From an uncultured Bacteroidales bacterium (GTDB lineage Bacteria > Bacteroidota > Bacteroidia > Bacteroidales > FEN-979): a stretch of DNA of 40,994 bases. Each line of letters begins with the position of its first letter. Position 1 is the first letter of the stretch. Made by a program: the position numbers and the translations under genes. The DNA is taken from the NCBI GenBank assembly GCA_903926565.1, contig CAIYJU010000056.1:1-40994 (forward strand), in the 5' to 3' direction. The notes under the pieces were generated by a model. It was not told where the DNA came from and searched no databases. It saw only the letters and a program-made list of their open reading frames with translations. This document shows, piece after piece, positions 5,848 to 22,416 of the stretch.

Positions 5848-5866
5848 CCTGTTGGAAACAGTAAAA

Positions 5867-7081: not shown

Positions 7082-7950
7082 ACAATCCTCGCCATAACTT
7101 CATCATTCACAGCAAACCAGGCATCGTAAAAAGCCTTCACTACCGGATCATCAGCAAGGCCATCCCTGTTGGCACCGGTTTCCCAGGGTTTGTAGCTTCC
7201 GGTAAAGTGCAAAATCCTGATGTCAGCAGGATCGATATGACCGGCTGCTGAAAAGTCCCGCCAATTGCTGACGATCATGTTATACGTATAATCAAGTAAC
7301 CGGACTTTCCCGTCAAAAAGCAGGTTGAGCACCACCTGGTCGGTGTTGTGCGTGCGGATATTCCCGAAAACGGTGCTGTGAATCAACTCCTTTAACCCTT
7401 CATATGTGTGATGGTTCAGCAAAGTTTTATCAGCAACCATAAAACCGGCATTGAAGGTTTTCTTCAACACATCTCTGTCTCCGACCCCATCGGCGCTGAT
7501 CCTTTTAAAGGTGCTGCGGTCGCGCACTTTCCCAACATGCCGGTTCGGCTGATCCGAGCACGCCAGCAGTGGTTCGGGATACGAAAGCAGTTCCGAAATA
7601 TTACCCGTGACGAGCATGTCGCTGTCAAAAAAGAACAGCCGGTCGTATCCGTCAAGGTTGAAGAGTTCTATGGAATAAAACCGCTTCCGCCTTGGGATGA
7701 ACGCCGGAAGTGCATTGCAAAGATGCCCGATACGCAGCAACAGATCTTCTCCGGGTTTGCGGAACACCACCTTCGGAAAGATTTCAAACAGTTTAGCCTG
7801 CTCTGGGTCCAGCCCGTCCGAAATAATCACAATATCACCATCGAACCAGGGATTGTGATTTAAAAAGGATTGGATCAGCACAAGCGTTCCCGGAACAAAT
7901 TCAGAACTTGTCACAGTGCAAATACCCGTATTCCCTGAATTTATCGCCAT
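7054..7950 (-). CDS. GT8-type glycosyltransferase (copy a)
   Basis: 298 residues, cytoplasmic, no signal peptide. A GT-A fold is indicated by the N-terminal strand GICTVTSSEFVPGTLVLIQS, the nucleotide-sugar/metal motif D109-S-D111 in LFFFDSDMLV, and the late ILHFTGSYKPW motif that supplies the last metal ligand in GT8 enzymes. It is homologous to copies b and c (9542 and 11229), sharing NPWFxGD, ALPAF and RFYSxE, but is the most divergent. It is the last gene of the minus operon, 32 bp after a sulfotransferase. Sugar donor and acceptor are not predictable; the context suggests the lasso peptide or a cell-surface glycan. Confidence 0.8.
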   Translation of the reverse strand: MAINSGNTGICTVTSSEFVPGTLVLIQSFLNHNPWFDGDIVIISDGLDPEQAKLFEIFPKVVFRKPGEDLLLRIGHLCNALPAFIPRRKRFYSIELFNLDGYDRLFFFDSDMLVTGNISELLSYPEPLLACSDQPNRHVGKVRDRSTFKRISADGVGDRDVLKKTFNAGFMVADKTLLNHHTYEGLKELIHSTVFGNIRTHNTDQVVLNLLFDGKVRLLDYTYNMIVSNWRDFSAAGHIDPADIRILHFTGSYKPWETGANRDGLADDPVVKAFYDAWFAVNDEVMARIVYFFLICPR

Positions 7951-7982
7951 CTCACCATATATTTCTCATCACCGGCTACCTT

Positions 7983-8744
7983 TTACCTCCATTCAAAATC
8001 ACGTCCCGTCATCTCATACAATTGCCGGTTGAACGGCTCGAAATAGGCGGTCAGCTGTTCCCTTGTTTCCGGCTTCATCGGCGGATAATCAGAAGGGTTA
8101 TGCTTTTTGTTTATACTGATCTCTGCCGGTGGAAGGCCTAAATATCGGAAAACCTGCTGAAAGGTTTGTCCGGCATCTTTAAAATAGTCTTCACTCCGGA
8201 TGATCAGCAGTTGTTCCCTGTCAAAATAACGGTACCATTCGGCAAGCTGTTCCGCGTACCTGCTCCTGGTCAGAAAGGAAAACCTGCGGTACATCAGGTC
8301 CGAATGGTTTTCCTCCTGGTAAAAGGCCTCTTTCCTGCCGGCGTGGACATCCTCCTCAAGCCGGATGCAATGCTCAAATGACAGGGATATCCTTCCCTTG
8401 CGTTTCATGTGCTGGTACTGTGAGTAGGCGCGGTTTACCGGGTTGCGGAGCAGCAAAATCAGTTTGATGTCGGGGTATGTATTGTAAATCCGGACAGGTG
8501 CCAGCGGATGAAAAAAATAAAAGGGAGATGCTTCCCCGGTACAAACAGGAACAGTGTCCCTGTTTTTGTTAAAATAACGGAGATACCAGTCAAGACCAAA
8601 GGAGTAATTTTCATCAAAAAAATGGAGTTCTTTTTTTCTCGGCAGTTTAATTTCCGGGTGTTTCCCAAGGTGTTTGAAGAGCGTGGAAGTACCGCATTTC
8701 ATGGCTCCGATAATGATGAAATCTGGTGCTTTTATCGTTTTCAT
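7983..8744 (-). CDS. PAPS-dependent sulfotransferase (copy a)
   Basis: 253 residues. The 5'-phosphosulfate-binding loop is GAMKCGTSTL at about residues 13-22, and the 3'-phosphate-binding segment is LLLRNPVNRAYSQY. The order and spacing fit Sulfotransfer_1/heparan-type sulfotransferases, which transfer sulfate from PAPS to hydroxyls or amines. The length is typical for bacterial cytosolic members. It is homologous to the sulfotransferase at 10481, which has the same PDFxIxGAxKxGT start, which supports duplication. It lies 9 bp from the gene upstream and 32 bp from the GT8 copy downstream. Acceptor candidates are Tyr residues in the predicted peptide or sugars added by neighbouring GTs (inference). 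Confidence 0.8.
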   Translation of the reverse strand: MKTIKAPDFIIIGAMKCGTSTLFKHLGKHPEIKLPRKKELHFFDENYSFGLDWYLRYFNKNRDTVPVCTGEASPFYFFHPLAPVRIYNTYPDIKLILLLRNPVNRAYSQYQHMKRKGRISLSFEHCIRLEEDVHAGRKEAFYQEENHSDLMYRRFSFLTRSRYAEQLAEWYRYFDREQLLIIRSEDYFKDAGQTFQQVFRYLGLPPAEISINKKHNPSDYPPMKPETREQLTAYFEPFNRQLYEMTGRDFEWR

Positions 8745-8753
8745 GATATCAGA

Positions 8754-9545
8754 TCAGGAATGAAAGGTATAAGCTGAAAGGTGTTCAAACCTGGCCAGAT
8801 TCTGTGAAACATACTCAATATTTGATTCACTCCATGACACATCCAAACGACTTTTATGCGGGGATGGGTAGATGACTTTTCTGCAATTTTCAACAAACCC
8901 CTCAGGCACCTCCAGGCCAAGAAACCTGAACAGGTTGAGGATGGTTTCATCGGGCAGAGACAATAACTTTTCGTGGTAAACATCATGCCAATCGTCAGGT
9001 TGAATCAGTTTCCTCAGTTCTGCAGTCCGCTCAATTCGTTTAATAAATTTATCAATTGTAATGACGATATTGTCTGTTTTGGGGTTCTGGGTTTTCGTGA
9101 ACAGGGTGCTGATCATATCATATGGGTTCCTTATAACATGAATGTACTTTATTGGCATGCCCAACCTTGTTCCAATGGCATCGAAAACTTCCGGTTTTTT
9201 CGTGAAAAATTCCGAACTGCCTCCGCCCTTTTTGTCACCAACCACCTTCAGTGTCGTAAACCGCCCGTTCCATTCACCCGGAATGAAGTAAGAATAATTG
9301 TTCCATGTTCTTCCTTCCCGGGCAAACTTGATTGAATTTAAGAGGATCATCGAAAAAATCCGTTCTTTTGGGTATCCCTTCCTCAGTAATTTTCCGACAT
9401 GGAGTTCATGGGAAATTGCTGCATTGGGATGCGCATCAATGATTGACCCCACCAGGCTGTGCCCGCTGTACGGATAGCCGATAAACAGGCAAAAGTGTTG
9501 AAGGTGGCTTAACAACGCTTCATTTAATTCGATATCATTGGTCAT
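8754..9545 (-). CDS. Sulfotransferase family protein, divergent
   Basis: 263 residues. A sulfotransferase fold is suggested by the loop FIGYPYSGHSLVGSIIDAHP near residues 21-40, in place of the usual YPRSGT, and by VIRNPYDMISTLFTK, which matches the RNPxD 3'-phosphate motif. Nearby VVGDKKGGGS and a late LFRFLGL are also seen in the family. It is not a close copy of the other sulfotransferases in the locus, so it probably has another acceptor. The start codon overlaps the stop of the upstream GT8 gene (ATGA), indicating translational coupling. PAPS dependence is expected from the family but unproven. Confidence 0.75.
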   Translation of the reverse strand: MTNDIELNEALLSHLQHFCLFIGYPYSGHSLVGSIIDAHPNAAISHELHVGKLLRKGYPKERIFSMILLNSIKFAREGRTWNNYSYFIPGEWNGRFTTLKVVGDKKGGGSSEFFTKKPEVFDAIGTRLGMPIKYIHVIRNPYDMISTLFTKTQNPKTDNIVITIDKFIKRIERTAELRKLIQPDDWHDVYHEKLLSLPDETILNLFRFLGLEVPEGFVENCRKVIYPSPHKSRLDVSWSESNIEYVSQNLARFEHLSAYTFHS

Positions 9546-10453
9546 AATGATTTGTCGGTTTTTTTTAATGCGGTCAACTTCTTTTGCAAATGGTAGAATT
9601 TTAAAAAACTGATGTACCTCTCATACCACATCTGGTATGCTCTTAACCAATTCAGGTTATTTTGCGATGAATCAAAGACTTCGTTAAAATTCCAGGGTTT
9701 AAATCTTGAATAGTAGTGTATTATTTTGGCATCATCGAGGGAGATGTTCTCTTTCTCCCTGATCATCCGGGCTGCCCTTGCCCTGAAGTTATAACGGGTG
9801 TCGAGCAACATGACTGAATTTCCGAAATACTGGTTGATGATCCTCTCATCGGTGTATGAGAGGTTGTCATTTCCCCACCTTTCAGGATCGATGAGTTTCA
9901 GCAATTCCGGATAGTGATTCTCATTTATTACGCTGTTATCAAGAAGCATAAAACCTGTGTTGAAAGGATTCTTCAAAAACCCCCCCTGGTTTTCGGTCGT
10001 TTGAAACCCAACATTAAAATTCACCCCCTCTCTCCCCTTGCCTTTGTACCAGCACAACTCCGCACTGGCATAAAACGATCCGGGAAGCGTGAATAACTCT
10101 TCAACGGATTTAACCACGATCATATCGCTGTCGAGAAAGAGTATCTTGTCATAACCGTCCAGCCTGAATATTTCAAGAGAGTAAAACCTGGCTGTTTTAT
10201 CCTTAAATGCAGGCAGGGCATTGCTGAACTTAAACAGCCTGGAAATAAGGTCTGCAGTTGGTTCAACCAGCTTCACGTTTCCCGCCAGTTTAATATCGTC
10301 TTTCATTTCCGGAGGCAGGTCATGGCAAATCACCGCAATATCGCCTGAGAACCATGGATTTGAGCTGACAAACGAGTGCAGCATTGTCATGGTCCACTGG
10401 AAATAACTTTCAGTGGTTACTGTCGCAAGGCAATATTTTTGATCTTTGTTCAC
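9542..10453 (-). CDS. GT8-type glycosyltransferase (copy b), GTG start
   Basis: 303 residues. The start codon is GTG: the alignment with copy c starts at the same place, and an in-frame stop lies two codons upstream. D108-S-D110 in ILFLDSDMIVV is the GT8 metal-binding triad, and IIHYYSRFKPWNF near residue 265 is the late motif. It is clearly paralogous to copy c at 11229 (shared CLATVTT, QWTMTM, NPWFSGD, AELCWYKGKGR/AESCWYQGKGR and NTGFM/NSGFM). It overlaps the next sulfotransferase by 4 bp. The sugar and acceptor are unknown. Confidence 0.8.
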   Translation of the reverse strand: MNKDQKYCLATVTTESYFQWTMTMLHSFVSSNPWFSGDIAVICHDLPPEMKDDIKLAGNVKLVEPTADLISRLFKFSNALPAFKDKTARFYSLEIFRLDGYDKILFLDSDMIVVKSVEELFTLPGSFYASAELCWYKGKGREGVNFNVGFQTTENQGGFLKNPFNTGFMLLDNSVINENHYPELLKLIDPERWGNDNLSYTDERIINQYFGNSVMLLDTRYNFRARAARMIREKENISLDDAKIIHYYSRFKPWNFNEVFDSSQNNLNWLRAYQMWYERYISFLKFYHLQKKLTALKKTDKSL

Positions 10454-10480
10454 TGTTCAGTTTTCATTGTTCATTGCGGA

Positions 10481-11248
10481 TCAGGGCTTCCATTCATCAA
10501 TTTCCCGCCCCAGGAATTCAAAAAGCCGGTCGTTAAAGGGTTTGTAAAACCGCTGAAGCGCTGTGGCCGTTCCGTGATCAAGATTTACAGTATACTCGGT
10601 TTTGCGTTTCCATGTACAAGTGCCTTCCGGGAAACCGTTGATGTTTAAAAACCTGCTGACTTTACTTAACGTCTCTGCAGGATCATGATAATATTGTTCG
10701 GAAATCAGAATCAGCAGCTGTTCCTTCGGAAATATCCCCAGAAGATGTTCAATTTGCTCAATGTACCTCCCCCGTTCAAAAATGTCCAATGGTTCCTGTC
10801 TTCGGGTTAATTCGGAATTATTGGTAAGATAATAGTTGAATAAATGGGAAAATCCGATATTATCGATTACTGGACTGTTTCTCCTGTTATACTGATGGGT
10901 TTGCTTTAACAACCGGCTCTGGTTGTACCTCATGGTCCAATTGGAAAATGCCCGCTTTACCGGTTCCCGAAGCAAAATAATGAGTTTCATCCCGGGGTGA
11001 TGATTGAAAATTCTCTGATGACAATCGACTTCGTACAGATAGGAAGTTGATTTCTCACCCTGTGTTTTTTCACGATCCGGGAAATGTGAACAATACCATT
11101 CGCTGCCATTTTTGAAAAAGTGCGAAAAATAATTAAGTTCCGCCCCGGGTGTGTAAACATCGGGATGGTGTTTCAGGTCAGCAATCAACGAAGTTGTTCC
11201 CGACTTTGCTGCACCTGCAATCAGAAAATCAGGAATGGCGGGGTTCAT
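10481..11248 (-). CDS. PAPS-dependent sulfotransferase (copy b)
   Basis: 255 residues. The phosphosulfate loop is GAAKSGTTSL (residues 12-21), and the 3'-phosphate motif is IILLREPVKRAFSNW. Both are close to those of the 7983 copy, with a shared PDFLIAGA-type N-terminus and a similar C-terminus (YKPFNDRLFEFLGR versus FEPFNRQLYEMTGR). The 5' end overlaps copy c of the GT8 enzymes by 20 bp, showing tight coupling. Each of these sulfotransferases lies beside a GT8 gene, so a sugar-then-sulfate module is plausible (inference). Confidence 0.8.
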   Translation of the reverse strand: MNPAIPDFLIAGAAKSGTTSLIADLKHHPDVYTPGAELNYFSHFFKNGSEWYCSHFPDREKTQGEKSTSYLYEVDCHQRIFNHHPGMKLIILLREPVKRAFSNWTMRYNQSRLLKQTHQYNRRNSPVIDNIGFSHLFNYYLTNNSELTRRQEPLDIFERGRYIEQIEHLLGIFPKEQLLILISEQYYHDPAETLSKVSRFLNINGFPEGTCTWKRKTEYTVNLDHGTATALQRFYKPFNDRLFEFLGREIDEWKP

Positions 11249-12140
11249 CGCTTTTCAGGAGGTTAATTTTTCGTTTCAGATGGTTGTACTTCAAAAATTC
11301 AACATAGTATGCATACCATATCCGGAAGGCCTCAATATGCACCATGTCGCCTTGTGACAGGTTAAAAACCTCGGCAAAATTCCAGGGTTTGTACTGCCGG
11401 AAATAATGTATGATCATGGCGTCTTCAAGCCTGACCCCCTCTTTTGCCTGGATCGCTGCCGAAGAAGTTGGCCTGTAGTTATAACTTGCATTGAAAAGCG
11501 TTATCTTATCTCTGAAATACAGGTTAATGATTAGCTGGTCAGCATGAAGCGTATTTTTATTTGTCCAGAGTTCCGGTTCAATCAATCGTACAAGACAATC
11601 ATAGTTCAAAGGGGTAAGCACTGATTCATCGAGGATCATGAATCCTGAGTTTATCGGGTTTTCCAGAAACAATCCAGGCACCTGGTAATTTTCAACCGCT
11701 TCATACGTGTCAATCCGCCTTCCTTTACCCTGGTACCAGCACGACTCGGCACATGCCCCGAACGGTACCGTTACATCAAACAGTTCTCTCACCGATTTAA
11801 CGACCAGCACATCACTGTCAAGGAATAAAACCCTGGAATATCCCGACAAACCAAAAGTCTCCAGCGAATAGAACATCGGAGCAAGCCTGGCAAATGCTGG
11901 CTGGACATTTATTAACTCCTTAACCCTGCTGAGAAGATGATTTGAAGGGGTTATAAAACGCACCTTCGGAAAAATGTCAAACCTGCTTCTGTCTTCAACC
12001 GTCAGGTCAGGGGATATAACCACGAAATCGCCTGAAAACCAGGGATTCGACTCACGAAATGAAAACATCATGGTCATGGTCCACTGGATATAACTTGCAG
12101 TGGTTACCGTGGCCAGGCAAATATTCTCACTCTTCGTCAT
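11229..12140 (-). CDS. GT8-type glycosyltransferase (copy c)
   Basis: 303 residues. The metal-binding D108-S-D110 lies in VLFLDSDVLVV, and IIHYFRQYKPWNF is the C-terminal motif. It is the closest relative of copy b at 9542. The start overlaps the stop of the cysteine-rich gene upstream (ATGA), and its end overlaps the next sulfotransferase by 20 bp. GT8 enzymes are retaining and use UDP-sugars or similar donors; specificity here is unknown. No signal peptide, so it probably acts in the cytoplasm on the peptide or on a lipid-linked glycan. Confidence 0.8.
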   Translation of the reverse strand: MTKSENICLATVTTASYIQWTMTMMFSFRESNPWFSGDFVVISPDLTVEDRSRFDIFPKVRFITPSNHLLSRVKELINVQPAFARLAPMFYSLETFGLSGYSRVLFLDSDVLVVKSVRELFDVTVPFGACAESCWYQGKGRRIDTYEAVENYQVPGLFLENPINSGFMILDESVLTPLNYDCLVRLIEPELWTNKNTLHADQLIINLYFRDKITLFNASYNYRPTSSAAIQAKEGVRLEDAMIIHYFRQYKPWNFAEVFNLSQGDMVHIEAFRIWYAYYVEFLKYNHLKRKINLLKSDEPRHS

Positions 12141-13054
12141 GCATTATTGGTTTTCAGATATTTGACAAAAAGTTTAGCCGGAATCAGTTTGAAATTTGAA
12201 AATCCCATTTGATGAAACTTCTCAACATTGAAAAAATAGAAGGCATACTCAAGCATGCCAAGTTCCTGTTTTTTGCACCGGATTTTTTCCGCCCCGGCCT
12301 GGTTAGACTTCGAAATATCAGCATAACAGATCCTGGAAGGACAACTGTAGGCACATGCTGCATTGGCAAAAAGCATGATCCGGTTTTTTTCAGGAAGGCT
12401 TTCTAGAAATTCATCATCGTCGTTCAAATCCATCGGAATCACTACGTCATCGTATAGTTCAAGGGCTTTTGAGACTTTCCGGACACTGTTCAGGTTCTTA
12501 ATAATACTGGCCCTGATTTGATACATCGGAAAATCTTTTCTGACCATCCGGGCGAGTTCATCCGAGGTACAAATTATAACATTCCCCTCACGGTGGTATT
12601 TCTCAAGAAACAAAAGATTCTGCTGGTAAAGTTCATGTGAAAAAAAATGGTTTGTTAAGGTAAGGGCGAGATTTATCTTCCTGTTATACAATGTATCAAT
12701 TTGATTTTCATTCAATGATTTGGCAGGGTCATACACCCGTCCTCCGTAAAACCCGGAAGGCTCAGTAGTGCTGCCAAAGACTGAAGTGATCTGCGAAAAA
12801 TCAATATAAACAAATGAAAACTGAAGGTATTTGACAATGCTGGAGCGCTGATTTATCCATCTTCCCGATACGGAATATGAGTAAGCAGGATTTTTAAACA
12901 TTTCGTGACTGGTTTTGATGTCAACGACATTTTTAAACAGTTCTTTCATCTGTCTGCCAGGGTTCGTTTTTATCATGTAAAAATAGTTTATTAAAGCAAT
13001 GCCCAGGCTAAAATATCCAAACATAATTAAATTATATTTGTGCCGATTTTGCAT
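12137..13054 (-). CDS. Conserved hypothetical, TIM-barrel-like with Cys cluster (U32-like?)
   Basis: 305 residues and not firmly recognised. Alternating strands and helices (VYIDF, INLALTLTN, VIICTSDELA, RASIIKNLNSV, DVVIPMD, IMLFANA) suggest a TIM barrel. It ends in a cysteine cluster C234-x3-C238-x4-C243 with a further C260. That layout recalls U32-type proteins (UbiU/UbiV family), where Cys residues bind Fe-S, but no peptidase assignment is justified. It is the first gene of the minus operon, overlapping the GT8 gene by 4 bp. The start could also be the ATG at 13024 or 12976: the 13054 start runs under the promoter of the divergent kinase gene. A role in the modification pathway is inferred only from position. 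Confidence 0.55.
   Translation of the reverse strand: MQNRHKYNLIMFGYFSLGIALINYFYMIKTNPGRQMKELFKNVVDIKTSHEMFKNPAYSYSVSGRWINQRSSIVKYLQFSFVYIDFSQITSVFGSTTEPSGFYGGRVYDPAKSLNENQIDTLYNRKINLALTLTNHFFSHELYQQNLLFLEKYHREGNVIICTSDELARMVRKDFPMYQIRASIIKNLNSVRKVSKALELYDDVVIPMDLNDDDEFLESLPEKNRIMLFANAACAYSCPSRICYADISKSNQAGAEKIRCKKQELGMLEYAFYFFNVEKFHQMGFSNFKLIPAKLFVKYLKTNNA
13033..13040 (+). promoter_or_regulatory. -7 element for the kinase-sulfotransferase pair
   Basis: TATATTTG is a perfect TAnnTTTG -7 element, 40 bases before the ATG at 13080. No good TTG was found at the expected -33 distance. It supports 13080 rather than the in-frame ATG at 12999 as the kinase start. Confidence 0.4.
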
Positions 13055-13079: not shown

Positions 13080-14021
13080 ATGGATCAGCAATACTATTAT
13101 TACAAAGCGTTCGGACTGCTTTTCAAGTCTTGTATTGAACATCCTGAGTTTATTGCTGAGCCTTTCGCTTCCGATCCTGATTGCCTCATTACCTTTGGAT
13201 CAGTTCCAATAAAGTTAACCAAACCTGATAAAACAGGGGGTGTATACCAATCGAAGGGACAACAGTTTCTGCTGAAAATCAGTCATGTTGGCCGTTACCT
13301 GATAGAAAATGGAGATACAATCACCATTGAAATGATTCCCGGTGCAACAACACGTGATATAGTTGTATTCCTTTGGGCCTCTTCCATCGCGGTGTTGCTG
13401 CACCAGCGGGGAAAGTTCATCGTACATGGAAGTTCGGTCATGAAAGGAGAACATGCCGTCATTTTCTCCGGTCCCTCCGGGAGTGGCAAGTCAACCATTG
13501 CCTCTGCATTTGCAACGCACAAAGATTCGCTGATCATTTCCGACGACATCTCTGCCATTTCTGTTGATTCCACCGGCACTCCTGTGGTATTGCCAGGTTA
13601 CCCGCTGATGAAGCTCTGGCGCGACTCATCCGACACCCTTGGGCTTGAATGGGATGAAGAGAGGTTGATCCGTGAGAAGGTAAACAAGATGATGGTTAAC
13701 ATCAGTGACAGGTTTGTTCAGCATTCTGTTCCGTTGCGCCAGTTTTACCTGCTGTCATACAAGAGTAATGGTCCCGCGGTTATTACTGAAATTTACGGGT
13801 ATAAAAAGCTGGAATTGCTTACAGGAAAGATTTTCCGGAAGAATTATCTGAAAAAAGGTGAATCATCCACCCTGGATGTGTTCACAGAGGCATCGAAAAT
13901 ACTTCCGCATGTCAGGATCTGCACCCTGGAACGAATGCATGGTATTACCCACCTCGACGAAACCGTTGCAATGATTGAACAGGACCTTATGCATTCCGGG
14001 GTCATGAATCCCGTTCGATGA
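13080..14021 (+). CDS. HPr-kinase-like peptide kinase of a lasso cluster
   Basis: 313 residues from the ATG at 13080; an in-frame ATG at 12999 lies upstream of the -7 element and is disfavoured. The C-terminal half is HprK-like: VHGSSV at 115-120, Walker A GPSGSGKST at 131-139, the paired Asp D155-D156 in ISDDIS, and PGYPLMKLW. It lacks the N-terminal domain of full HprK, as do lasso-cluster kinases such as ThcoK/PadeK, which phosphorylate the C-terminal Ser of the precursor. The precursor here also ends in Ser. The stop overlaps the next start (ATGA), so it is coupled to a sulfotransferase. Phosphorylation of S44 is a strong inference, not seen directly. Confidence 0.8.
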   Translation: MDQQYYYYKAFGLLFKSCIEHPEFIAEPFASDPDCLITFGSVPIKLTKPDKTGGVYQSKGQQFLLKISHVGRYLIENGDTITIEMIPGATTRDIVVFLWASSIAVLLHQRGKFIVHGSSVMKGEHAVIFSGPSGSGKSTIASAFATHKDSLIISDDISAISVDSTGTPVVLPGYPLMKLWRDSSDTLGLEWDEERLIREKVNKMMVNISDRFVQHSVPLRQFYLLSYKSNGPAVITEIYGYKKLELLTGKIFRKNYLKKGESSTLDVFTEASKILPHVRICTLERMHGITHLDETVAMIEQDLMHSGVMNPVR

Positions 14022-14854
14022 AAAACCTGGTTTGGCTGGCATCCTATCCCAGATCGGGCAACACCTGGTTCCGCTTGTTTTTATCCTCTCTTTTATCCGG
14101 AAACCAGCGAGCTGACCTGAACAACCTTGAGGTTGACCTTTATGCGAATTCCAGGATCATTTTCGATGAATTGTCAGGTATCTCTTCATCAGAGTTGACC
14201 ATTCATGAGATCAGGGAGCTGAAACCAGTTGTTTTTCAGCTTCTGTCAGCCGAATCATCAGGGCGGTTTTACCTGAAAACCCACGACCGGTTTTTTCCGA
14301 CTCCCGACGAAAATCCTGCATTCCCGCCTGCATCATCCTTTGGATGCATCTACATCATTCGAAACCCGCTGGATGTTGCCGTTTCCAATGCGTTCTATTT
14401 CAGTAAATCCGCGGATGAGGTGATAGCGTCAATGAACAATCCCGAACATGCGCTTCACCCTTCGGTCAATTGTTTGCATCCATTGCTGGAAGAGTGGCTG
14501 GGCGACTGGAGCGGACATGCCACAAGCTGGATTAATTCGAAAATACGGGTACATGTTATCCGGTATGAGGATATGATCCGTTTTCCCGTTGAAACATTTT
14601 CAAAAGCCCTCAGGTTCCTGGAGCTTACATATACAGAAGAACAGGTAAAGCATGCCATCTCAGAAACATCGTTTGAAACCCTGAAAAAATCGGAGAAGCA
14701 GTTTGGATTTAAAGAGAAACTGCCGAGTTGCGATGCCTTCTTCAGGCAAGGAAAAGCAGGTGGCTGGAGATCATTTTTAACTGAATCGCAAATCAGGAAA
14801 ATAGTATCTGATCACCGTGAGGTGATGGAAAGGTTCGGATACATCGAACTTTGA
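14018..14854 (+). CDS. Sulfotransferase of the cytosolic (Sulfotransfer_1) type
   Basis: 278 residues. The three classical motifs are intact: the phosphosulfate loop YPRSGNTWFR at residues 10-19, IYIIRNPLDVAVS for 3'-phosphate binding, and near the C-terminus FRQGKAGGWRSFLT, matching the RKGxxGDWKxxFT nucleotide motif. This makes it the most canonical PAPS sulfotransferase of the four here. It is translationally coupled to the kinase (ATGA overlap at 14018-14021). It lies just before the GxxExxY element, which may separate it from the lasso core operon. Possible acceptors are a peptide Tyr or Ser, or a sugar hydroxyl. Confidence 0.85.
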   Translation: MKNLVWLASYPRSGNTWFRLFLSSLLSGNQRADLNNLEVDLYANSRIIFDELSGISSSELTIHEIRELKPVVFQLLSAESSGRFYLKTHDRFFPTPDENPAFPPASSFGCIYIIRNPLDVAVSNAFYFSKSADEVIASMNNPEHALHPSVNCLHPLLEEWLGDWSGHATSWINSKIRVHVIRYEDMIRFPVETFSKALRFLELTYTEEQVKHAISETSFETLKKSEKQFGFKEKLPSCDAFFRQGKAGGWRSFLTESQIRKIVSDHREVMERFGYIEL

Positions 14855-14953: not shown

Positions 14954-14954
14954 A

Positions 14955-15780: not shown

Positions 15781-16068
15781 ATGGCAATAAACATTAACTC
15801 GGTTATTTCAAAAAATCCAGCCATCATCTCCAGCAAAATGGACGATGAAGTGGTGATGATGAGCATTGAAAAAGGAAATTATTATGGATTGAACCCGGTT
15901 GCGGCAGAAATCTGGGAAATGCTCACCGCACCCATGACCGTGCAGGCGATAATTGACCGGTTGATGGAGGAATTTGACGTTGAACGCGAACAATGCTACA
16001 ACGAAGTGCTTGTCTATATCGGTAAGCTTGAAAATGAAGGTTTAATCGTCGTTAACGATCAGTCCTGA
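15781..16068 (+). CDS. Lasso peptide B1 protein: PqqD-like RiPP recognition element
   Basis: 95 residues, the usual size of a stand-alone RRE. PqqD-fold features are the beta-hairpin DDEVVMMSIEKGNYYGLNPV, the following AAEIWEML helix, and the C-terminal winged-helix part EVLVYIGKLENEGLI. In split lasso systems B1 binds the precursor leader and delivers it to the B2 peptidase. It lies 14 bp before B2. The leader of the nearby precursor has W11-x2-P14-x-I16, the type of site a B1 recognises. No Shine-Dalgarno is seen at the start, as is usual for the phylum. Confidence 0.85.
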   Translation: MAININSVISKNPAIISSKMDDEVVMMSIEKGNYYGLNPVAAEIWEMLTAPMTVQAIIDRLMEEFDVEREQCYNEVLVYIGKLENEGLIVVNDQS

Positions 16069-16082
16069 AATCACCCTCCTGC

Positions 16083-16493
16083 ATGACCCGCAAAACAATC
16101 GGATTATCAGACATCTGGTATTTTATTGCTGCTTATGCTTTACTCTGTGCATGCCAATTCCTGGTTCTCTTTATTCCATTTCGCTGGTACATCCGGCTAT
16201 TTAAAGATCACGGGAAAAACAATGATGAAAAAATTACGGCAGCCAAAACGCTCATTGTACGTAAAGCATTGCTGCGGGGGCTTCACTATCTTCCGTGGAA
16301 GGGAAAATGCCTGGTCCAGGCACTGACAGCGAAAACATTGCTGAAGATGGTTCATCTGCCCGGCACCATCTATCTCGGAATAGCCAAAGAGGACAACCTC
16401 CTGAAAGCGCATGCATGGCTTAAATCGGGCAATCAGTTTATTTGTGGCCAGGATGGTTATAGGAAATACACCATCGTGCAGGAGATTTCATAA
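16083..16493 (+). CDS. Lasso peptide B2 leader peptidase (Transglut_core3)
   Basis: 136 residues. The transglutaminase-like cysteine-protease core of lasso B2 enzymes is visible: Cys76 in GKCLVQALTA, His110 in LKAHAWLKSG, and a candidate Asp124 in CGQDGY. An N-terminal hydrophobic stretch at about residues 11-32, with basic residues after it, suggests membrane contact, as seen in many B2 proteins. It removes the leader to free the core N-terminus for cyclisation. It lies between B1 and the cyclase with gaps of 14 and 11 bp. No active-site loss is seen. Confidence 0.85.
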   Translation: MTRKTIGLSDIWYFIAAYALLCACQFLVLFIPFRWYIRLFKDHGKNNDEKITAAKTLIVRKALLRGLHYLPWKGKCLVQALTAKTLLKMVHLPGTIYLGIAKEDNLLKAHAWLKSGNQFICGQDGYRKYTIVQEIS

Positions 16494-16504
16494 CAACAAT
16501 TCAG

Positions 16505-18424
16505 ATGAGTACAATCTTTGGAATCATTGATAAAACCGGAGAGGGATTCGACCCGCATTGGCTTGAAATAATGAAGGCTGACCTTTCTCATGGAACTCCT
16601 GATGAATCGGGCATCTGGCTGAACGAGAAAGCCGGCTTGGGAAATTTATTGATTTTCAACACTCCCGAATCCCTGACTGAAAAACTGCCGTTTGAGGACC
16701 AGCAGACAGGTCATGTCATTTGCAGCGATTCGAGAATCGATAACCGGAACCAAATAGCCGGGTTGTTATCGGTCAGTGATAGTGACCTGAAAAGGATGTC
16801 CGACAGCGACCTGGTCATGCAGGCATACCTGAAGCGTTCAGAAGAGTGCTGTAACTTGTTGCGTGGTGATTTTTGCTTTGCCATTTATGATCCCAGTCAC
16901 CATTTTTTATTCATTGCAAGGGATCATTTTGGAATGCGGCCACTCTTTTATTTTGATCATCCCCGTTACTTTGTCTTCTCCTCTGAATTAAGAGGAATCC
17001 TTGCCTTGCCATTTTTCGATAAAGAACTGAACAAGTCATGGTTGCTTGATTTCCTGATCAATGTTGAACGGGAAGAACATGACACTTTCTACCAGGGGAT
17101 ACACTCCCTCCCACCCGGCCATCGCCTGGTTGTGAGCTCCGGACGCGTGGAAATCCGCAGGTATTGGGAATTGACGGTTCCCGACAGGCTGGTTATGAAA
17201 TCAGATCAGGAATATATAGCGGGGTATAAGGCGCTGTTTGAAAGCGCAGTGAAAAACCGGGTCAGATCCGCTTTCCCGGTGGGCGCAGAGTTAAGCGGCG
17301 GACTCGACTCATCCTCCATTGCAGCGGTTGCTCAGAAGAGTCTGACGGCCAGGGGCGATCAATTGCATGCTTTTGCCCGGGTGCTTCCTGAGAAGGTCAT
17401 TCCTGAGCTTGATGAGAACTGGCAGGATGAAACTGCTGAAATTGAAATGGTTTGCAACTTTTGCAGGATAGAAAACATCCAGCATGTAACTCTTGAAGAT
17501 CAAAGGATCATCGACAACATACGACAAAACATCGATGTGATCCGTTCACCCTTTTACAGCAATTATGGCGTATATAACCTTAATGCAAATCAGATGGCAA
17601 GATCTGCAGGGGTACGAACCATTTTATCCGGTCATGGCGGGGATCAGATGCTGACAAATCCGGCTCATTTTGTATATACCGATTACAAAAGAAAATTCAG
17701 GTATTTTAAACTTTTTTGTGACATCAGGGCTCAAAACACCATACATGAACTTGGGTTTGCACAATCCCTGAGATATTTTTTTAATCTGCCTTCAGGTAAA
17801 ACAGATTTCAGCAATAAGAGACAAGAGGTTAAAAAACTCTACAGGTTTGGAATCGATCCCGGTTTCCTGAACCAGCATGACCTTGAGAAACAGTATCTGA
17901 AACACCGGCAGCAGGTGATGCTGCTCCCGGATGGTGCCACTGACCTCATGTTGAAGATTACCCAGCGTCATTTAACCAACCGGATTGAAGTTACCTCCAT
18001 CCTGGCAGGACATGACCAGATTGAATTCAGATATCCCATGTTCGATGTTGATTTGATCAGGTATTATCTTGCCGTTCCGGATGAAATCAAGCGCAAATTC
18101 AGGGTCGGCCGCTATATTCACAGGATGGCCATGCAGGATGAATTACCGGCATCAATTCAATGGAGAAAGGACAAGAACGGCACGATAAACCCGGGGCTTC
18201 CAAGGATTTTCACCAACGAGGCCGGAAAAATCAAAACCGACATGCAAAAATTTATCACGAATCGTAACATTTCATACCCGAATGTTTTTGACCTGAAAAT
18301 GATTGAAAAGCTTGTTGCCGCCAATGATAGCGAACTATTCAAATTCAAATCCCTGATCAATAAATTTTTCCAGTTGCAACCTTTTGAAAAAATAATTGAA
18401 AATAAATTTGGAAATCCGGTCTAA
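16505..18424 (+). CDS. Lasso cyclase (asparagine-synthetase-like, C protein)
   Basis: 639 residues, the size of lasso cyclases. The N-terminal half resembles a class II glutamine amidotransferase (DFCFAIYDPSHH; ARDHFGMRPLFYFDHPRYFV), but the catalytic Cys2 is absent (the protein starts M-S-T), as is normal for lasso cyclases that use no glutamine. The synthetase half carries the ATP pyrophosphate loop ELSGGLDSSS. Cyclases adenylate the side chain of an Asp or Glu and join it to the core N-terminus, threading the tail. The predicted acceptor is Glu34 of the precursor. The Cys2 loss and the B1/B2 neighbours separate this from ordinary AsnB. Confidence 0.9.
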   Translation: MSTIFGIIDKTGEGFDPHWLEIMKADLSHGTPDESGIWLNEKAGLGNLLIFNTPESLTEKLPFEDQQTGHVICSDSRIDNRNQIAGLLSVSDSDLKRMSDSDLVMQAYLKRSEECCNLLRGDFCFAIYDPSHHFLFIARDHFGMRPLFYFDHPRYFVFSSELRGILALPFFDKELNKSWLLDFLINVEREEHDTFYQGIHSLPPGHRLVVSSGRVEIRRYWELTVPDRLVMKSDQEYIAGYKALFESAVKNRVRSAFPVGAELSGGLDSSSIAAVAQKSLTARGDQLHAFARVLPEKVIPELDENWQDETAEIEMVCNFCRIENIQHVTLEDQRIIDNIRQNIDVIRSPFYSNYGVYNLNANQMARSAGVRTILSGHGGDQMLTNPAHFVYTDYKRKFRYFKLFCDIRAQNTIHELGFAQSLRYFFNLPSGKTDFSNKRQEVKKLYRFGIDPGFLNQHDLEKQYLKHRQQVMLLPDGATDLMLKITQRHLTNRIEVTSILAGHDQIEFRYPMFDVDLIRYYLAVPDEIKRKFRVGRYIHRMAMQDELPASIQWRKDKNGTINPGLPRIFTNEAGKIKTDMQKFITNRNISYPNVFDLKMIEKLVAANDSELFKFKSLINKFFQLQPFEKIIENKFGNPV

Positions 18425-18484
18425 GATGTTTATTATTGTCCCCTTGATTGCACACAGAACGCTAACTTATAAATATTTACTACT

Positions 18485-18619
18485 ATGGAAAATGTTACAA
18501 AAACCAAAAGGACATGGCAATCTCCTGAAATTGAAGTTATTAATTCTAAAATGACCAACAGCGGAGGCCATCCCTGGTACAAAGAAGATGCCCATTACAC
18601 CGACCCCTACCTTTCCTAA
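18485..18619 (+). CDS. Lasso precursor peptide (44 aa)
   Basis: The leader has W11-x2-P14-E-I16, a variant of the Y-x2-P-x-L site, and Thr24, the usual -2 residue. Cleavage after Asn25 gives the core SGGHPWYKEDAHYTDPYLS, 19 residues. Ser1 to Glu9 would be a nine-membered ring, leaving a ten-residue tail; Ser1 is rare but known (streptomonomicin). If cleavage is after Ser26, Gly1 to Glu8 or Asp9 is possible. There are three Tyr, no Cys, and C-terminal Ser44, the residue phosphorylated in paeninodin. The gene sits 60 bp after the cyclase and before a terminator. It is too short for routine ORF calling. Confidence 0.8.
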   Translation: MENVTKTKRTWQSPEIEVINSKMTNSGGHPWYKEDAHYTDPYLS

Positions 18620-18690
18620 TGCATATTCTTTTTATAAACAGTTTTAAATTCTAAACGGTTTTGTAACTGTTGTGCATCAGTATGATATTC

Positions 18691-18717
18691 AAACAGCAGG
18701 TTTTACCTGCTGTTTTT
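18691..18717 (+). terminator. Intrinsic terminator after the precursor gene
   Basis: AAACAGCAGG, loop TTTTA, CCTGCTGTTT and a following T tract form a ten-pair stem with a U run. It stands between the precursor (stop at 18619) and the exporter (start 18751), so it may trim transcripts after the precursor and allow only partial read-through to the exporter. Confidence 0.8.
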
Positions 18718-18750
18718 GATTTTTATGCATGTCAGTGTTCAGTTAAATAC

Positions 18751-20475
18751 ATGAAGCAAAAGGAGATACATCGCCAATTTTTAATCCGGCTTTCCAAAGA
18801 CCTTTTCAATTTTTCCGGCAGACGTGTGATTGTCTCTTTTGTCCTGCAGATTCTTACAGGTTTTACACAAGGAATCGGCATCCTGCTTTTGATCCCGCTC
18901 CTCAGCCTGATCGGAATTTTCGACAACCAGGGCAAGGGATCAGATTTTGTTGCAAAGGTTGTTGCCTTTCTCCATAAAACGGGCATTCCCGGCGGAATCG
19001 TCACAATCCTGTTATTTTATATTGTTATTGTTGCATTGAGTTCCGCGCTCAACAGCTACCAGAGTCTTGTCAATGCAAGGATTCAGCAAAGGTTTGTAAG
19101 GTTTCTCAAAGACAGGTTATACATCTCCTTAGGACACAGCCAGTGGCTTTTTGCCTCACGGTTACGGATGTCCGATGTTGCGCATATCGTTACCTCCGAG
19201 GTTCAGCGGGCCGGTCAGGCCATCTTCCAGGTTTTAAGATCCACCAGCACCCTGATCACCATGTTGATGTACCTTGGAGTAGCGTTCCTGTTGTCACCAT
19301 CCATGGCTTCTATATCCCTGGCCGGGGCACTCGTTCTGCTGGTCCTGGGGCAAAAGAAAAACAAATCGGCTGCTCAGCTTGGGAAATCCAGCCAACACGC
19401 TGCAAAGAAGGTTTACCAGGTGGTTCTGGAACATCTCTCGGGAATGAAGGTAGCCAAAAGTTTTGCTGAAGAAGACCGGTATATCGGAGAGTTTATTCAA
19501 CATACCGAAGATGTTGAAAACCGGAAAATAGATTATGTTAAATTGAGCTCACGCACCTCGTTCATGTTCTCCCTTGGAACGGTTGTCCTGCTAAGCGCCT
19601 ATGTTTATTTTGCCATCGAGGTACTTGCCATGCCTGCCTCCACCCTGCTGGTACTTATCTACATTTTTTCACGGCTGTTGCCCAAGGTCTCTTCGCTGCA
19701 GTCTTCCTACCAGTCCATTCTGCTTTCGATACCGGCCTTTACCGCCGTAATGGAGCTGCAAAAGGAATGTGACCTTCATGGTGAAAATTTAACCAGGGAC
19801 GGCAATCGGGCTGATATAGAAGGCTCTGTTGTTTTCAGAGATGTTTCCTTCAATTACGGCGCCAATATGGTACTTGATCATCTGTCGCTTCAAATCCCGT
19901 TAAACAGAATAACCTGCATCACCGGCAAATCCGGTTCGGGAAAGACCACACTCGCCGATTTGATCCTGGGGTTACTGAAACCGGTTTCAGGAGAAATCCT
20001 GGCGGACAACCGCCCGCTCGACGAGGCCCTCATCTACCAGTGGCGTAAAAGCCTCGGATATGTCACCCAGGAGTCCTTCCTCTTCAACGATACAATCCGC
20101 AACAACCTGGTGTGGACAAAGCCTGATGCCACAGATGATGAACTCTGGGATGCGCTCCAGAAAGCATCAGCGGATGAAATGGTGAGAAACTTAAAATCCG
20201 GGCTCGAAACTGTTGTTGGCGACCGGGGCGCCCAGCTCTCCGGCGGAGAACGCCAGCGGCTTGCACTGGCAAGGGCGCTGGTCCGCAAACCTGCCATGCT
20301 CATCCTCGATGAGGCAACAAATGCCCTGGACCAGGAAAATGAACAGAAGATCATCGGGGCGCTTGAGCGGATCAAAGGCACCACCACCATGGTGATCATC
20401 TCTCACAGCAAGGAAATTCACCGGATTGCCGACCAGGTCATCCACCTCGATGCAGGGAGGATCAGCCATGGCTGA
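18751..20475 (+). CDS. ABC exporter (fused membrane and ATPase domains), lasso D type
   Basis: 574 residues from the ATG at 18751; an in-frame TTG at 18670 lies upstream of the terminator hairpin and is rejected. Five to six membrane helices fill residues of about 20-310. The ATPase follows, with Walker A GKSGSGKTT near 392-400, signature LSGGERQRLALARAL near 496-510, and Walker B LILDEATNALD near 517-527. This domain order matches ABC exporters that secrete lasso peptides and also confer immunity. There is no N-terminal C39 peptidase domain, consistent with leader removal by B2. It overlaps the downstream GT2 gene by 8 bp. Confidence 0.85.
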   Translation: MKQKEIHRQFLIRLSKDLFNFSGRRVIVSFVLQILTGFTQGIGILLLIPLLSLIGIFDNQGKGSDFVAKVVAFLHKTGIPGGIVTILLFYIVIVALSSALNSYQSLVNARIQQRFVRFLKDRLYISLGHSQWLFASRLRMSDVAHIVTSEVQRAGQAIFQVLRSTSTLITMLMYLGVAFLLSPSMASISLAGALVLLVLGQKKNKSAAQLGKSSQHAAKKVYQVVLEHLSGMKVAKSFAEEDRYIGEFIQHTEDVENRKIDYVKLSSRTSFMFSLGTVVLLSAYVYFAIEVLAMPASTLLVLIYIFSRLLPKVSSLQSSYQSILLSIPAFTAVMELQKECDLHGENLTRDGNRADIEGSVVFRDVSFNYGANMVLDHLSLQIPLNRITCITGKSGSGKTTLADLILGLLKPVSGEILADNRPLDEALIYQWRKSLGYVTQESFLFNDTIRNNLVWTKPDATDDELWDALQKASADEMVRNLKSGLETVVGDRGAQLSGGERQRLALARALVRKPAMLILDEATNALDQENEQKIIGALERIKGTTTMVIISHSKEIHRIADQVIHLDAGRISHG

Positions 20476-21331
20476 GAAGCCGGTCGCTGATATATCCATT
20501 GTTGCTCCCAATTACAACAACGGACGCTTTCTCACTGCATTTATTGAAAGCATAGTCAACTCAACCTTCCTCCCCCGTGAGTTGATCCTGGTTGATGACG
20601 GTTCAACTGATGAATCAATGGTTGTTTTAGAAAAATTCTCTTACCTGGAATATCTCAGGGTGATAAGGCTCCCTGAAAACCGCGGGATGCCGGCAGCCCT
20701 GAACGCCGGGGTGGAATGTGCTGCAGCAAAATATATCATGCGTGCCGATCCTGACGACACTTTCTATCCTGAACGCATTGAATGTCAGTATCAATATATG
20801 GAAATGCATCCTGAAATCGATATTTCGGGATGCCAGGTACAGTACTTTCAATCCAAAACCGGGCATAACCTGAACATCTCCAACTTCCCAACCCGGCATA
20901 CCGATATTGTCCGTTCCTTTCAAAATGGAGTCAACGGCATACAACATCCAACCGTTATTGCCCGGCGGAACGTTTTCCAGGCCTACAGGTATGCGAATCA
21001 AACCCCGGGCGAGGATTATGACATCTTCTCGCGAATGGCACGTGATGGCCATCATTTTGCCAACCTTCACGAGCCATTGTACAGGATGAGGATTCATCCG
21101 GCAAGTTCAACAAGCAACATCACCTTAAAATCGGTACAGTATATATTCTCCACCCGTGACAGAATATGGGGCACTCAATCAACCAAAGCAAGAATATATT
21201 GCTACTATTTTTATATCTATTTTTACCGGCAGTATCAGCTTAAAACGAATATTTTGTCAAGACATCTCTTTTTGTTGTTAGCGGGCATCGTATTCCCGGC
21301 CAGAATAATTAAACGATTTACCGTCAGATGA
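20468..21331 (+). CDS. GT2 family glycosyltransferase
   Basis: 287 residues from the ATG at 20468, which overlaps the exporter stop by 8 bp; an in-frame TTG at 20426 is a poor start. Classical GT2 features are ISIVAPNYNNGRFL, ILVDDGSTDES, the GMPAALNAGVE segment and the metal-binding MRADPDD. It is probably cytoplasmic; a hydrophobic C-terminal stretch (YYFYIYFYRQY, LFLLLAGIVF) may contact the membrane. Its place after the exporter suggests it works on the peptide or on a glycan made with it. Family assignment is firm; donor and acceptor are unknown. Confidence 0.85.
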   Translation: MAEKPVADISIVAPNYNNGRFLTAFIESIVNSTFLPRELILVDDGSTDESMVVLEKFSYLEYLRVIRLPENRGMPAALNAGVECAAAKYIMRADPDDTFYPERIECQYQYMEMHPEIDISGCQVQYFQSKTGHNLNISNFPTRHTDIVRSFQNGVNGIQHPTVIARRNVFQAYRYANQTPGEDYDIFSRMARDGHHFANLHEPLYRMRIHPASSTSNITLKSVQYIFSTRDRIWGTQSTKARIYCYYFYIYFYRQYQLKTNILSRHLFLLLAGIVFPARIIKRFTVR

Positions 21332-22416
21332 AAGTTGGAATCCTTGGAACCCGCGGAATCCCGAACAATTATGGAGGTTTTGAACAGTTTGCCGAATATT
21401 TTTCATGCAGGCTGGCAGCAGCCGGGGTTGAAGTCTGGGTATACAATTCGCACAACCATCCATACCGGCAGGATAAGTGGAACGGTGTTCATATCGTGCA
21501 TTGTTTTGATCCGGAGTATATTATTGGACCGGCCGGACCTTTTATATACGACCTGAATTGCATCCTTGACAGCCGGAAACGTCATTTTGACATCATCTTA
21601 CAACTTGGATATGCAAGTGCCTCTGTGTGGCACAGGTTTCTTCCCACAGGGGTTAAAATTGTAACCAATGTGGATGGGCTCGAATGGTCACGCTCCAAAT
21701 ATGGCAGAATGCTCAAATCCTTCATCCGAAAGGCGGAACACCTGGCTGTTTTCAGCAGTGATTTAATTGTAGCCGACTCACCGCAGATCGACGAATATTT
21801 TCATCGTACCCATGGAATAGACTCCTGTTATATTCCTTATGGGGCAGAAATCCTTGATAAGCCGGACGAAACAGCGCTGCATGCTTTTAATGTGTTACCG
21901 GGATCATACTATCTGGCCATTTCAAGGATTCAGCCCGACAACAACACCGAGGCCATTATGAAAGGGTTTCTTGAGTCAGGTTCTGACCGGCACCTGCTGT
22001 TGGTGGGCAGTATGAATAATCAATATGGGAAAGAGCTGATAAGAAGATACCCTTCTGAAAAGATCAGGTTCCTGGGCACCATTTTCGACATCAACCTGCT
22101 CAATCAGCTGCGGTATTATTCGCGGCTCTATTTTCATGGACATTCGTCAGGCGGCACCAATCCTTCACTACTGGAGGCCATGGCTTCCCGGGCATTGATC
22201 TGCGCACATGACAATCGTTTTAACAGGATGATCCTTGGCCCGGATGCCTTTTATTTCAGCAATGAACACGATATTGCAGGCCATATCCTTGCTGACCCAT
22301 CCAAAGGGGAGCATGCACACTTTCTTTCAAATAATGTAAAGAAAATCGTGGATACATATCAGTGGGATAAAATAACAGATTCCTACATCGAAGCGTTTAA
22401 AACTGTTCTGAAATAA
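21328..22416 (+). CDS. DUF1972/GT4-type glycosyltransferase (rhamnosyltransferase-like)
   Basis: 362 residues. The N-terminus MKVGILGTRGIPNNYGGFEQ is the hallmark of DUF1972 proteins, exemplified by the WchF-type rhamnosyltransferases of capsule pathways. VDGLEWSRSKYG in the middle, and the C-terminal GT-B region with GTNPSLLEAMASRALICAHDN, complete a two-domain retaining GT. The start overlaps the GT2 stop (ATGA). It closes the lasso operon; a bidirectional terminator follows. The sugar is plausibly rhamnose or a related deoxyhexose, unproven. Confidence 0.85.
   Translation: MKVGILGTRGIPNNYGGFEQFAEYFSCRLAAAGVEVWVYNSHNHPYRQDKWNGVHIVHCFDPEYIIGPAGPFIYDLNCILDSRKRHFDIILQLGYASASVWHRFLPTGVKIVTNVDGLEWSRSKYGRMLKSFIRKAEHLAVFSSDLIVADSPQIDEYFHRTHGIDSCYIPYGAEILDKPDETALHAFNVLPGSYYLAISRIQPDNNTEAIMKGFLESGSDRHLLLVGSMNNQYGKELIRRYPSEKIRFLGTIFDINLLNQLRYYSRLYFHGHSSGGTNPSLLEAMASRALICAHDNRFNRMILGPDAFYFSNEHDIAGHILADPSKGEHAHFLSNNVKKIVDTYQWDKITDSYIEAFKTVLK

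What the first reader, a model, noticed from the sequence alone, without database searches (positions are those of the whole stretch)
15781..20475. Complete lasso-peptide core with an uncalled 44-residue precursor
B1 (RRE), B2 (Cys76/His110), C (Cys2-less AsnB-like cyclase), A and D are contiguous, in order B1-B2-C-A-D. The precursor at 18485-18619 has W-x2-P-x-I, Thr at -2 and a predicted core SGGHPWYKEDAHYTDPYLS. Ser1-Glu9 gives a nine-residue ring. Bacteroidota lasso peptides are few and a Ser1 core is uncommon, so the product may be new.
Basis: partly seen in the sequence, partly recalled or inferred. Interest (0 to 1): 0.85.

Follow-up and report, generated by a model that had tools for sequence, protein, structure and literature searches.

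The report
Lasso peptide cluster with kinase-sulfotransferase pair
This stretch of an uncultured bacterium's genome holds a real gene set for making a small knotted (lasso) peptide, and beside it sit a kinase gene and a sulfotransferase gene that often accompany such gene sets and may add phosphate and sulfate to the peptide.

Summary
B1, B2, C, A and D lie in order at 15781-20475, and the 44-codon precursor at 18485-18619 is a real gene: it is kept between C and D in 3 of 3 genus relatives with a close B2, evolves under strong purifying selection (dN/dS about 0.03 against the nearest) and is followed by a conserved hairpin. Thr(-2), Glu9 and a C-terminal Ser are identical in all four species; residue 1 is Ser in two and Gly in two, so the Ser1-Glu9 ring is well supported but not shown. 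Both occur in 25 of 46 B2 loci of the host's order; among the 80 best sulfotransferase loci scanned they are adjacent in 68, and adjacent together with B1 or B2 in 59. In one locus they are fused. At loci with the pair 36 of 38 strict precursor candidates end in Ser, the residue some lasso kinases phosphorylate. Most likely product: a 19-residue lasso peptide phosphorylated at Ser19 and possibly sulfated, site unknown.

The parts
13080..14021 (+). HPr-kinase-like peptide kinase (K); the ORF opens at 12999, conservation begins at the ATG at 13080
   Evidence: H143, G158, G163, K164, D182, D183 (ORF numbering) invariant in 12 of 12 aligned lasso-locus kinases, matching positions of the motif reported for lasso kinases in PMC10368454 (passage); weak match TIGR04352, 30.1 bits against 200
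14018..14854 (+). PAPS-type sulfotransferase (SULT), overlaps the end of the kinase gene
   Evidence: PF00685 95.4 bits against 22; S-Y-P-x-S-G-N-T-W, His89, R115-N-P-L-D and S123 invariant in 11 of 11; meaning of these motifs recalled
15781..16068 (+). B1, PqqD-like leader-binding protein (RRE)
   Evidence: NF033536 91.4 bits, over cut-off
16083..16493 (+). B2, transglutaminase-like leader peptidase
   Evidence: NF033537 73.6 bits, over cut-off; Cys76, His110 invariant in 15 of 15
16505..18424 (+). C, asparagine-synthetase-like lasso cyclase without Cys2
   Evidence: PF00733, PF13537; NF033535 398.2 bits, below cut-off 525; SGGLDSS in the sequence
18485..18619 (+). A, 44-residue precursor; leader residues 1-25, predicted core residues 26-44 (window 18560-18616)
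   Evidence: conserved in the window and 3 relatives, dN/dS about 0.03, pattern in 0 of 6418 distant short ORFs
18691..18715 (+). terminator-like hairpin between A and D
   Evidence: 11-pair stem with T tail (13 such sites found in the region against 10.0 expected, this one the strongest), folding z-score -6.0, hairpin visible in all four aligned sequences (read by eye)
18751..20475 (+). D, ABC exporter
   Evidence: PF00664 and PF00005
20468..21331 (+). family-2 glycosyltransferase, next to D in the window and 3 of 3 relatives; role uncertain
   Evidence: PF00535; synteny
21328..22416 (+). family-4-type glycosyltransferase (DUF1972), in the window and 3 of 3 relatives; role uncertain
   Evidence: PF09314, PF13439; synteny
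12137..12949 (-). protein of unknown family, divergent from the kinase gene (ORF opens at 13054; conserved start 12949); role uncertain
   Evidence: no NCBIfam match, no Pfam match over cut-off; found in exactly the 4 of 19 genus genomes that have this cluster; homologue fused to a sulfotransferase domain inside the lasso locus L089; homologues elsewhere outside lasso loci
7054..12140 (-). three family-8 glycosyltransferases (7054-7950, 9542-10453, 11229-12140) and three sulfotransferase-fold proteins (7983-8744, 8754-9545, 10481-11248); membership in the lasso pathway uncertain
   Evidence: PF01501, PF00685, PF13469; largely kept beside the cluster in the relatives, with local changes; the 8754-9545 gene is in exactly 4 of 19 genus genomes
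5840..7081 (+). nucleotidyltransferase NTP_transf_5, a kind also seen near other lasso genes
   Evidence: PF14907 156.9 bits; homologues in 39 of the 80 sulfotransferase loci; in L042 beside the block, not found in L039

Best explanation
The genes make a lasso peptide. B1 binds the leader of the 44-residue precursor; the HPr-kinase-like protein phosphorylates the C-terminal Ser of the linear precursor; B2 cuts after residue 25 (Thr at -2); C activates Glu9 with ATP and joins it to the amino group of Ser1, giving a nine-residue ring threaded by the ten-residue tail DAHYTDPYLS; D exports the product. The adjoining sulfotransferase most likely adds a sulfate from PAPS to the same peptide or its modified tail. 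Basis: gene identities, precursor conservation and the kinase-sulfotransferase-lasso linkage are shown here from sequence; the steps of B1, B2, C and kinase follow published lasso systems; ring, phosphate and above all sulfate are inferred. My odds: lasso pathway 0.95; Ser1-Glu9 ring 0.8; phosphorylation of Ser19 0.65 (lowered from 0.7 on checking, because the C-terminal Ser is also present at loci where no kinase was found); sulfation of the peptide 0.5.
For: Curated lasso models for B1 and B2; conserved K-SULT-B1-B2-C-A-D order in four genomes; four precursors with identical T(-2), E9-D10-A11-H12-Y13 and C-terminal S; dN/dS about 0.03. Order sample: of 46 B2 loci, 25 have the sulfotransferase and all 25 have the kinase; 8 have the kinase only, 13 neither. 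Of the 80 best sulfotransferase loci: kinase model in 72, kinase adjacent on the same strand in 68, kinase with B1 or B2 in 62, adjacent pair with B1 or B2 in 59; B1 in 61, C in 56, B2 in 52. One ORF in L107 holds kinase and sulfotransferase domains next to C and a precursor candidate. 36 of 38 strict candidates at pair loci end in Ser, against 8.9% of 20980 short ORFs. Catalytic motifs intact.
Against: No product has been seen. C is below the curated cut-off of the lasso cyclase model and A below that of the paeninodin model. The C-terminal Ser is not specific to pair loci: 6 of 6 strict candidates at loci without the full set also end in Ser, as do 5 of 5 looser candidates at 4 loci with neither gene found (several on short contigs), while at kinase-only loci 7 of 18 looser candidates do (some of these are not true precursors). 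No sulfate acceptor stands out: a Tyr in the last eight residues is present in 23 of 45 Ser-ending looser candidates with the pair and 1 of 7 with kinase only (p = 0.11). 39 of 74 pair loci gave no strict candidate. 7 of the 80 sulfotransferase loci show neither kinase nor B1/B2, and 10 with kinase show no B1/B2, several on short contigs.
Confidence: 0.75

Rival explanations
1. A plain phosphorylated lasso peptide of the paeninodin kind; the sulfotransferase works on something else, such as a polysaccharide made by the neighbouring glycosyltransferases.
For: The window holds three more sulfotransferase-fold genes, several glycosyltransferases and an O-antigen-ligase-like gene at 3802-5847, so a sulfated polysaccharide is plausible; no conserved sulfate acceptor was found in the precursors.
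Against: This sulfotransferase is found beside the kinase in distant phyla: adjacent in 68 of 80 loci, while GT8 hits lie in the fetched flanks of only 8 of the 80; kinase and sulfotransferase are fused in L107.
Confidence: 0.3
2. The cut lies one residue later, giving a Gly1 core GGHPWYKEDAHYTDPYLS with an eight-residue ring to Glu8.
For: Gly is the commonest first residue (21 of 38 strict candidates), and GG follows in the window.
Against: It would put Thr at -3; the genus precursors with GGG and GGS at this place fit T(-2), Gly1 and Glu9, so T(-2) with Glu9 is the register that all four share.
Confidence: 0.12
3. The cluster is decayed or silent and makes nothing.
For: A GxxExxY gene with flanking repeat arrays interrupts the gap between sulfotransferase and B1; the host is a draft genome of 210 contigs.
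Against: The reading frames of the cluster are open, the precursor is under purifying selection, and the same element sits in the same gap of L042, whose cluster genes are also full length.
Confidence: 0.05

Closest known systems
Paeninodin (Paenibacillus dendritiformis), lasso peptide with HPr-kinase-like tailoring kinase
   Same: HPr-kinase homologue in the cluster and a precursor ending in Ser, which the kinase phosphorylates (review PMC8498205, passages); split B1/B2 and the leader motif (recalled)
   Different: gene order K-SULT-B1-B2-C-A-D, Ser1 or Gly1 core, sulfotransferase gene joined to the kinase gene, precursor below the family cut-off NF033524
Firmicutes lasso clusters with a putative sulfotransferase gene at the start (Zhu et al. 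2016c as told in PMC8498205)
   Same: sulfotransferase gene beside a lasso cluster
   Different: no activity is told there; here the gene is shown to pair with the kinase in 25 of 46 B2 loci of one order and across phyla, once as a fusion
Pseudomycoidin (Bacillus pseudomycoides), phospho-glycosylated lasso peptide (PMC8498205, passages)
   Same: kinase plus a nucleotidyltransferase gene
   Different: in the window the nucleotidyltransferase is 6 kb from the kinase, beyond the GT8 block; sulfotransferase added
BsfA/BsfK lasso system of Bradymonas (PMC10368454, passages)
   Same: kinase motif with His, GxxGxGKS and Asp-Asp (in my alignment the middle glycine varies)
   Different: there Ser3 of a core ending in Asp is phosphorylated and leader residue -2 is Ile; here Thr(-2) and a C-terminal Ser

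Membership tests
Lasso peptide gene cluster (split B) | B1 leader-binding protein of the PqqD family | tested here: met
   NF033536 over cut-off
Lasso peptide gene cluster (split B) | B2 transglutaminase-like peptidase with Cys and His | tested here: met
   NF033537 over cut-off; Cys76, His110 invariant in 15 of 15. The third catalytic residue was not identified
Lasso peptide gene cluster (split B) | AsnB-like cyclase C | tested here: inconclusive
   best NCBIfam model is the lasso cyclase NF033535 but 398.2 bits against a cut-off of 525; adjacency to B1, B2 and A argues for it
Lasso peptide gene cluster (split B) | precursor with leader motif, Thr(-2), and D/E at core position 7-9 | tested here: met
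Lasso peptide gene cluster (split B) | threaded macrolactam product | not testable with these tools
   needs mass spectrometry and threading tests
Paeninodin family (NF033524) | precursor over the curated score | tested here: not met
   18.6 bits against 27; the three relatives 15.4, 19.8 and 21.7
Kinase-tailored (C-terminal phospho-Ser) lasso peptides | HPr-kinase-like gene in the cluster with intact ATP site | tested here: met
   present in the window and 3 of 3 relatives
Kinase-tailored (C-terminal phospho-Ser) lasso peptides | C-terminal Ser on the precursor | tested here: met
   4 of 4 in the genus; 36 of 38 strict candidates at pair loci; but also 6 of 6 at other loci, so not specific
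Kinase-tailored (C-terminal phospho-Ser) lasso peptides | phosphate found on that Ser | not testable with these tools
   no product
Sulfated lasso peptide | sulfate ester on the product | not testable with these tools
   only gene linkage and intact motifs

The most novel reading that the evidence does not exclude
The whole block from about 5.8 to 22.4 kb is one pathway: a lasso peptide whose C-terminal phospho-Ser carries a glycan built by the nucleotidyltransferase, GT8, GT2 and GT4 enzymes and sulfated by four sulfotransferases, giving a sulfo-glyco-phospho-lasso peptide; the kinase-sulfotransferase pair would be a widespread, uncharacterised tailoring module.
Probability: 0.12. Interest if true: 0.8.

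Novelty: new variant of a known kind. Interest (0 to 1): 0.5.

Why it matters
A sulfotransferase that pairs with the lasso kinase across phyla makes the question whether sulfated lasso peptides exist, and what the added charge does, directly testable with a small gene set. I know of no sulfated lasso peptide, and the listings and the passages showed none; these cover open-licence papers only. The four-species precursor alignment gives a ready test object from a phylum for which I recall no characterised lasso peptide (listings seen, papers in them not read).

Tried and rejected
Tyrosine as the sulfate acceptor: many tails read E-D-x-x-Y or F-Y near the end, but 22 of 45 Ser-ending candidates at pair loci have no Tyr in the last eight residues, and the contrast with kinase-only loci is not significant (23 of 45 against 1 of 7, p = 0.11). 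Left open.

C-terminal Ser as a mark of the kinase-sulfotransferase pair: rejected as a specific mark. Strict candidates at loci without the full set end in Ser as well (6 of 6).

The unknown protein at 12137-12949 as a dedicated lasso gene: supported by its 4-of-19 distribution and the L089 fusion. In an order sample of 295 genomes it is found in 5; four strong hits are in genomes with kinase-sulfotransferase lasso loci, but in the three that are not the host (one genus) it lies on another contig among unrelated genes with no lasso, GT8 or sulfotransferase hit nearby, and the fifth hit is weak. The structure prediction had low confidence (mean pLDDT 43.8, four sequences), so no fold search was made; a profile search of solved structures gave three hits at E 0.39 to 0.62.

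GT8 genes as regular partners: 8 of the 80 sulfotransferase loci have one in the fetched flank, none of L043-L058 or L147-L182, none printed for L183-L217; too few to claim.

Clade inheritance of the cluster in the genus: not supported by the rpoB tree, where the label needs at least two changes; 17 of 19 genomes were in it, the other two gave no rpoB match, and 7 of 13 inner branches are unresolved.

Looser precursor pattern: 65 candidates at 54 of 79 pair loci with B2, of which 45 end in Ser; it admits clear non-precursors, so the strict set is quoted, in which the window and L039 share one core sequence (37 distinct). Rows dropped before counting: L118 and L145 as duplicates; also L090, L040, L059-L066 and the short loci before L039. 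One search did not include L183-L217, fetched later.
Full report
The window is contig C56 of a 4.69 Mb draft genome in 210 contigs. Cys76 and His110 of B2 are invariant in 15 of 15 aligned proteins. C starts MSTIFG, without the Cys2 of glutamine-dependent synthetases (sequence; role of Cys2 recalled).

The precursor is a gene. The same short ORF stands between C and D in the three genus relatives that have a close B2 (G015, G018, G001; loci L039, L041, L042; B2 80, 69 and 62 percent identical). By BLAST the ORF is 93 percent identical over 44 residues, 78 over 37 and 65 over 37. All four share W-x2-P-E-I, N-S-K-M-T at -6 to -2, Glu9-Asp10-Ala11-His12-Tyr13 and a C-terminal Ser; position 1 is Ser, Ser, Gly, Gly. 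Against L039, 13 of 20 base differences lie in synonymous codons; dN 0.039, dS 1.36. A terminator-like hairpin follows at 18691-18715 and can be seen in all four sequences. The strict precursor pattern was absent from 6418 short ORFs more than 4 kb from any gene hit and present in 57 of 9758 nearby.

At 13080-14021 lies an HPr-kinase-like protein in which H143, G158, G163, K164, D182 and D183 are invariant in 12 of 12 aligned; these fit the lasso kinase motif given in PMC10368454 (passage), whose middle glycine varies here. At 14018-14854, overlapping the kinase gene, lies a sulfotransferase whose S-Y-P-x-S-G-N-T-W, His89, R115 and S123 are invariant in 11 of 11 aligned (their roles in PAPS binding and catalysis are recalled).

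How tight is the link? In the order sample B2 was found in 46 of 393 genomes. In maps of these 46 loci the sulfotransferase is in 25, each time with the kinase; kinase without sulfotransferase in 8; neither in 13, some of them cut by contig ends. In the phylum sample B2 is in 36 of 395 genomes. The sulfotransferase profile hits 6 of 395 at E up to 1e-25: three at E below 1e-90, all with B2 on the same contig (0.3 to 6 kb away by coordinates for the two that are not the window), and three at E about 1e-44 to 1e-51, of which two have a B2 elsewhere in the genome, not linked, and one has none. Record titles include Bacteroidales, Chloroflexi, Acidobacteria, Verrucomicrobia, Desulfobacteraceae, Rhodospirillales and Gammaproteobacteria. 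In L107 kinase and sulfotransferase are one 657-residue ORF.

The precursor type. At 74 loci with sulfotransferase, kinase and B1 or B2, 35 gave 38 strict candidates; 36 end in Ser, one in Asn, one in Val, against 8.9 percent of 20980 short ORFs. Position 1 is Gly in 21, Ser in 9, Thr in 6, Ala in 2. But 6 of 6 strict candidates at other loci end in Ser too, so the Ser belongs to this kind of precursor and is not proof of the kinase at a given locus. Published kinases phosphorylate the C-terminal Ser of linear precursors in paeninodin and its kin, with a different site (Ser3) in the Bradymonas system, where B1 speeds the kinase (PMC8498205 and PMC10368454, passages). Phosphorylation of Ser19 is therefore the natural reading. 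The sulfate acceptor remains open.

Literature. A sulfotransferase gene at the start of some Firmicutes lasso clusters was noted by Zhu et al. 2016c as reported in the review PMC8498205 (passages; the original was not held). Searches for 'lasso peptide' with 'sulfotransferase', with 'sulfation' and 'lassopeptide' with 'sulfotransferase' showed no sulfated lasso peptide in their listings; I read the listings, and passages of PMC8498205 only. A 2026 review (PMC13352647, passages) names several lasso modifications; none of its three 'sulf' matches that were shown concerns a sulfated lasso peptide. The library holds open-licence papers only.

The wider block. Between the nucleotidyltransferase (5840-7081) and the kinase lie, on the other strand, three GT8 glycosyltransferases, three sulfotransferase-fold proteins and one protein of unknown family. 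They are largely kept beside the lasso genes in the three relatives (L042 has two GT8 genes in this stretch, and no nucleotidyltransferase hit was seen in L039 or L041, whose fetched stretch ends there). The two that I searched for (12137-13054 and 8754-9545) are found in exactly the 4 of 19 genus genomes with this cluster. Two other genus members, G007 and G008, have only distant B2 genes and lack both. A homologue of the unknown protein is fused to a sulfotransferase domain between sulfotransferase and C in L089. Against a dedicated role, homologues in three genomes of another genus sit in unrelated surroundings.

The cluster turns over fast or moves. By rpoB, G018 and G001 are 98.7 percent identical to the host and G015 93.3, yet the cyclase is 54.5, 59.7 and 69.3 percent identical in the same order and the sulfotransferase 63.7, 61.4 and 74.3. 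The exporter and the unknown protein are about equally close to G015 and G018 (80.8 and 80.1; 79.6 and 80.4), still far below rpoB for G018. The rpoB tree needs at least two changes of the cluster label. Transfer between species is a likely cause; fast divergence, or wrong binning of a contig, cannot be excluded.

Host. Two contigs of genomes of the same order have the lengths of records titled Bacteroidales (G257:C30 and L102, 84758 bases; G043:C15 and L145, 85451 bases), so the order is probably Bacteroidales in NCBI's naming; this is inference from lengths.

Verdict. A true and well-supported lasso cluster, ordinary in its core, made more interesting by a kinase-sulfotransferase pair that is common, conserved and, as far as I could find, without a known product.

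Noticed in passing
window 14868-15522: A GxxExxY-family gene (14955-15332, TIGR04256, 131 bits) lies on the other strand between the sulfotransferase and B1, flanked by inverted arrays of an 8-base unit. The same gene, 93 percent identical, sits in the gap between sulfotransferase and B1 of L042 while neighbouring lasso proteins are about 60 percent identical; no hit in L039, L040 or L041.
   Followed up: partly
L107 8921-10894: One open frame holds an HPr-kinase-like domain and a sulfotransferase domain, next to a lasso cyclase and a precursor candidate with a very acidic tail; a second sulfotransferase and kinase hit follow downstream.
   Followed up: partly
L089 10883-12541: A homologue of the unknown protein at window 12137-12949 (46 percent over 254 residues) is fused to a second sulfotransferase domain between sulfotransferase and cyclase.
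   Followed up: partly
L078: Four strict precursor candidates in one Chloroflexi locus, three of them with Ser1 cores, two with a double Cys near the end.
   Followed up: no
L206 7052-9740, L207 7007-9736: Two kinase genes flank the sulfotransferase (K-SULT-K-B1-B2) in two genomes of one genus.
   Followed up: no
window 22482-31802: A 3106-residue repeat-rich ORF on the minus strand next to the cluster; a homologue (66 percent over 1423 residues) sits beside the cluster in L041.
   Followed up: no
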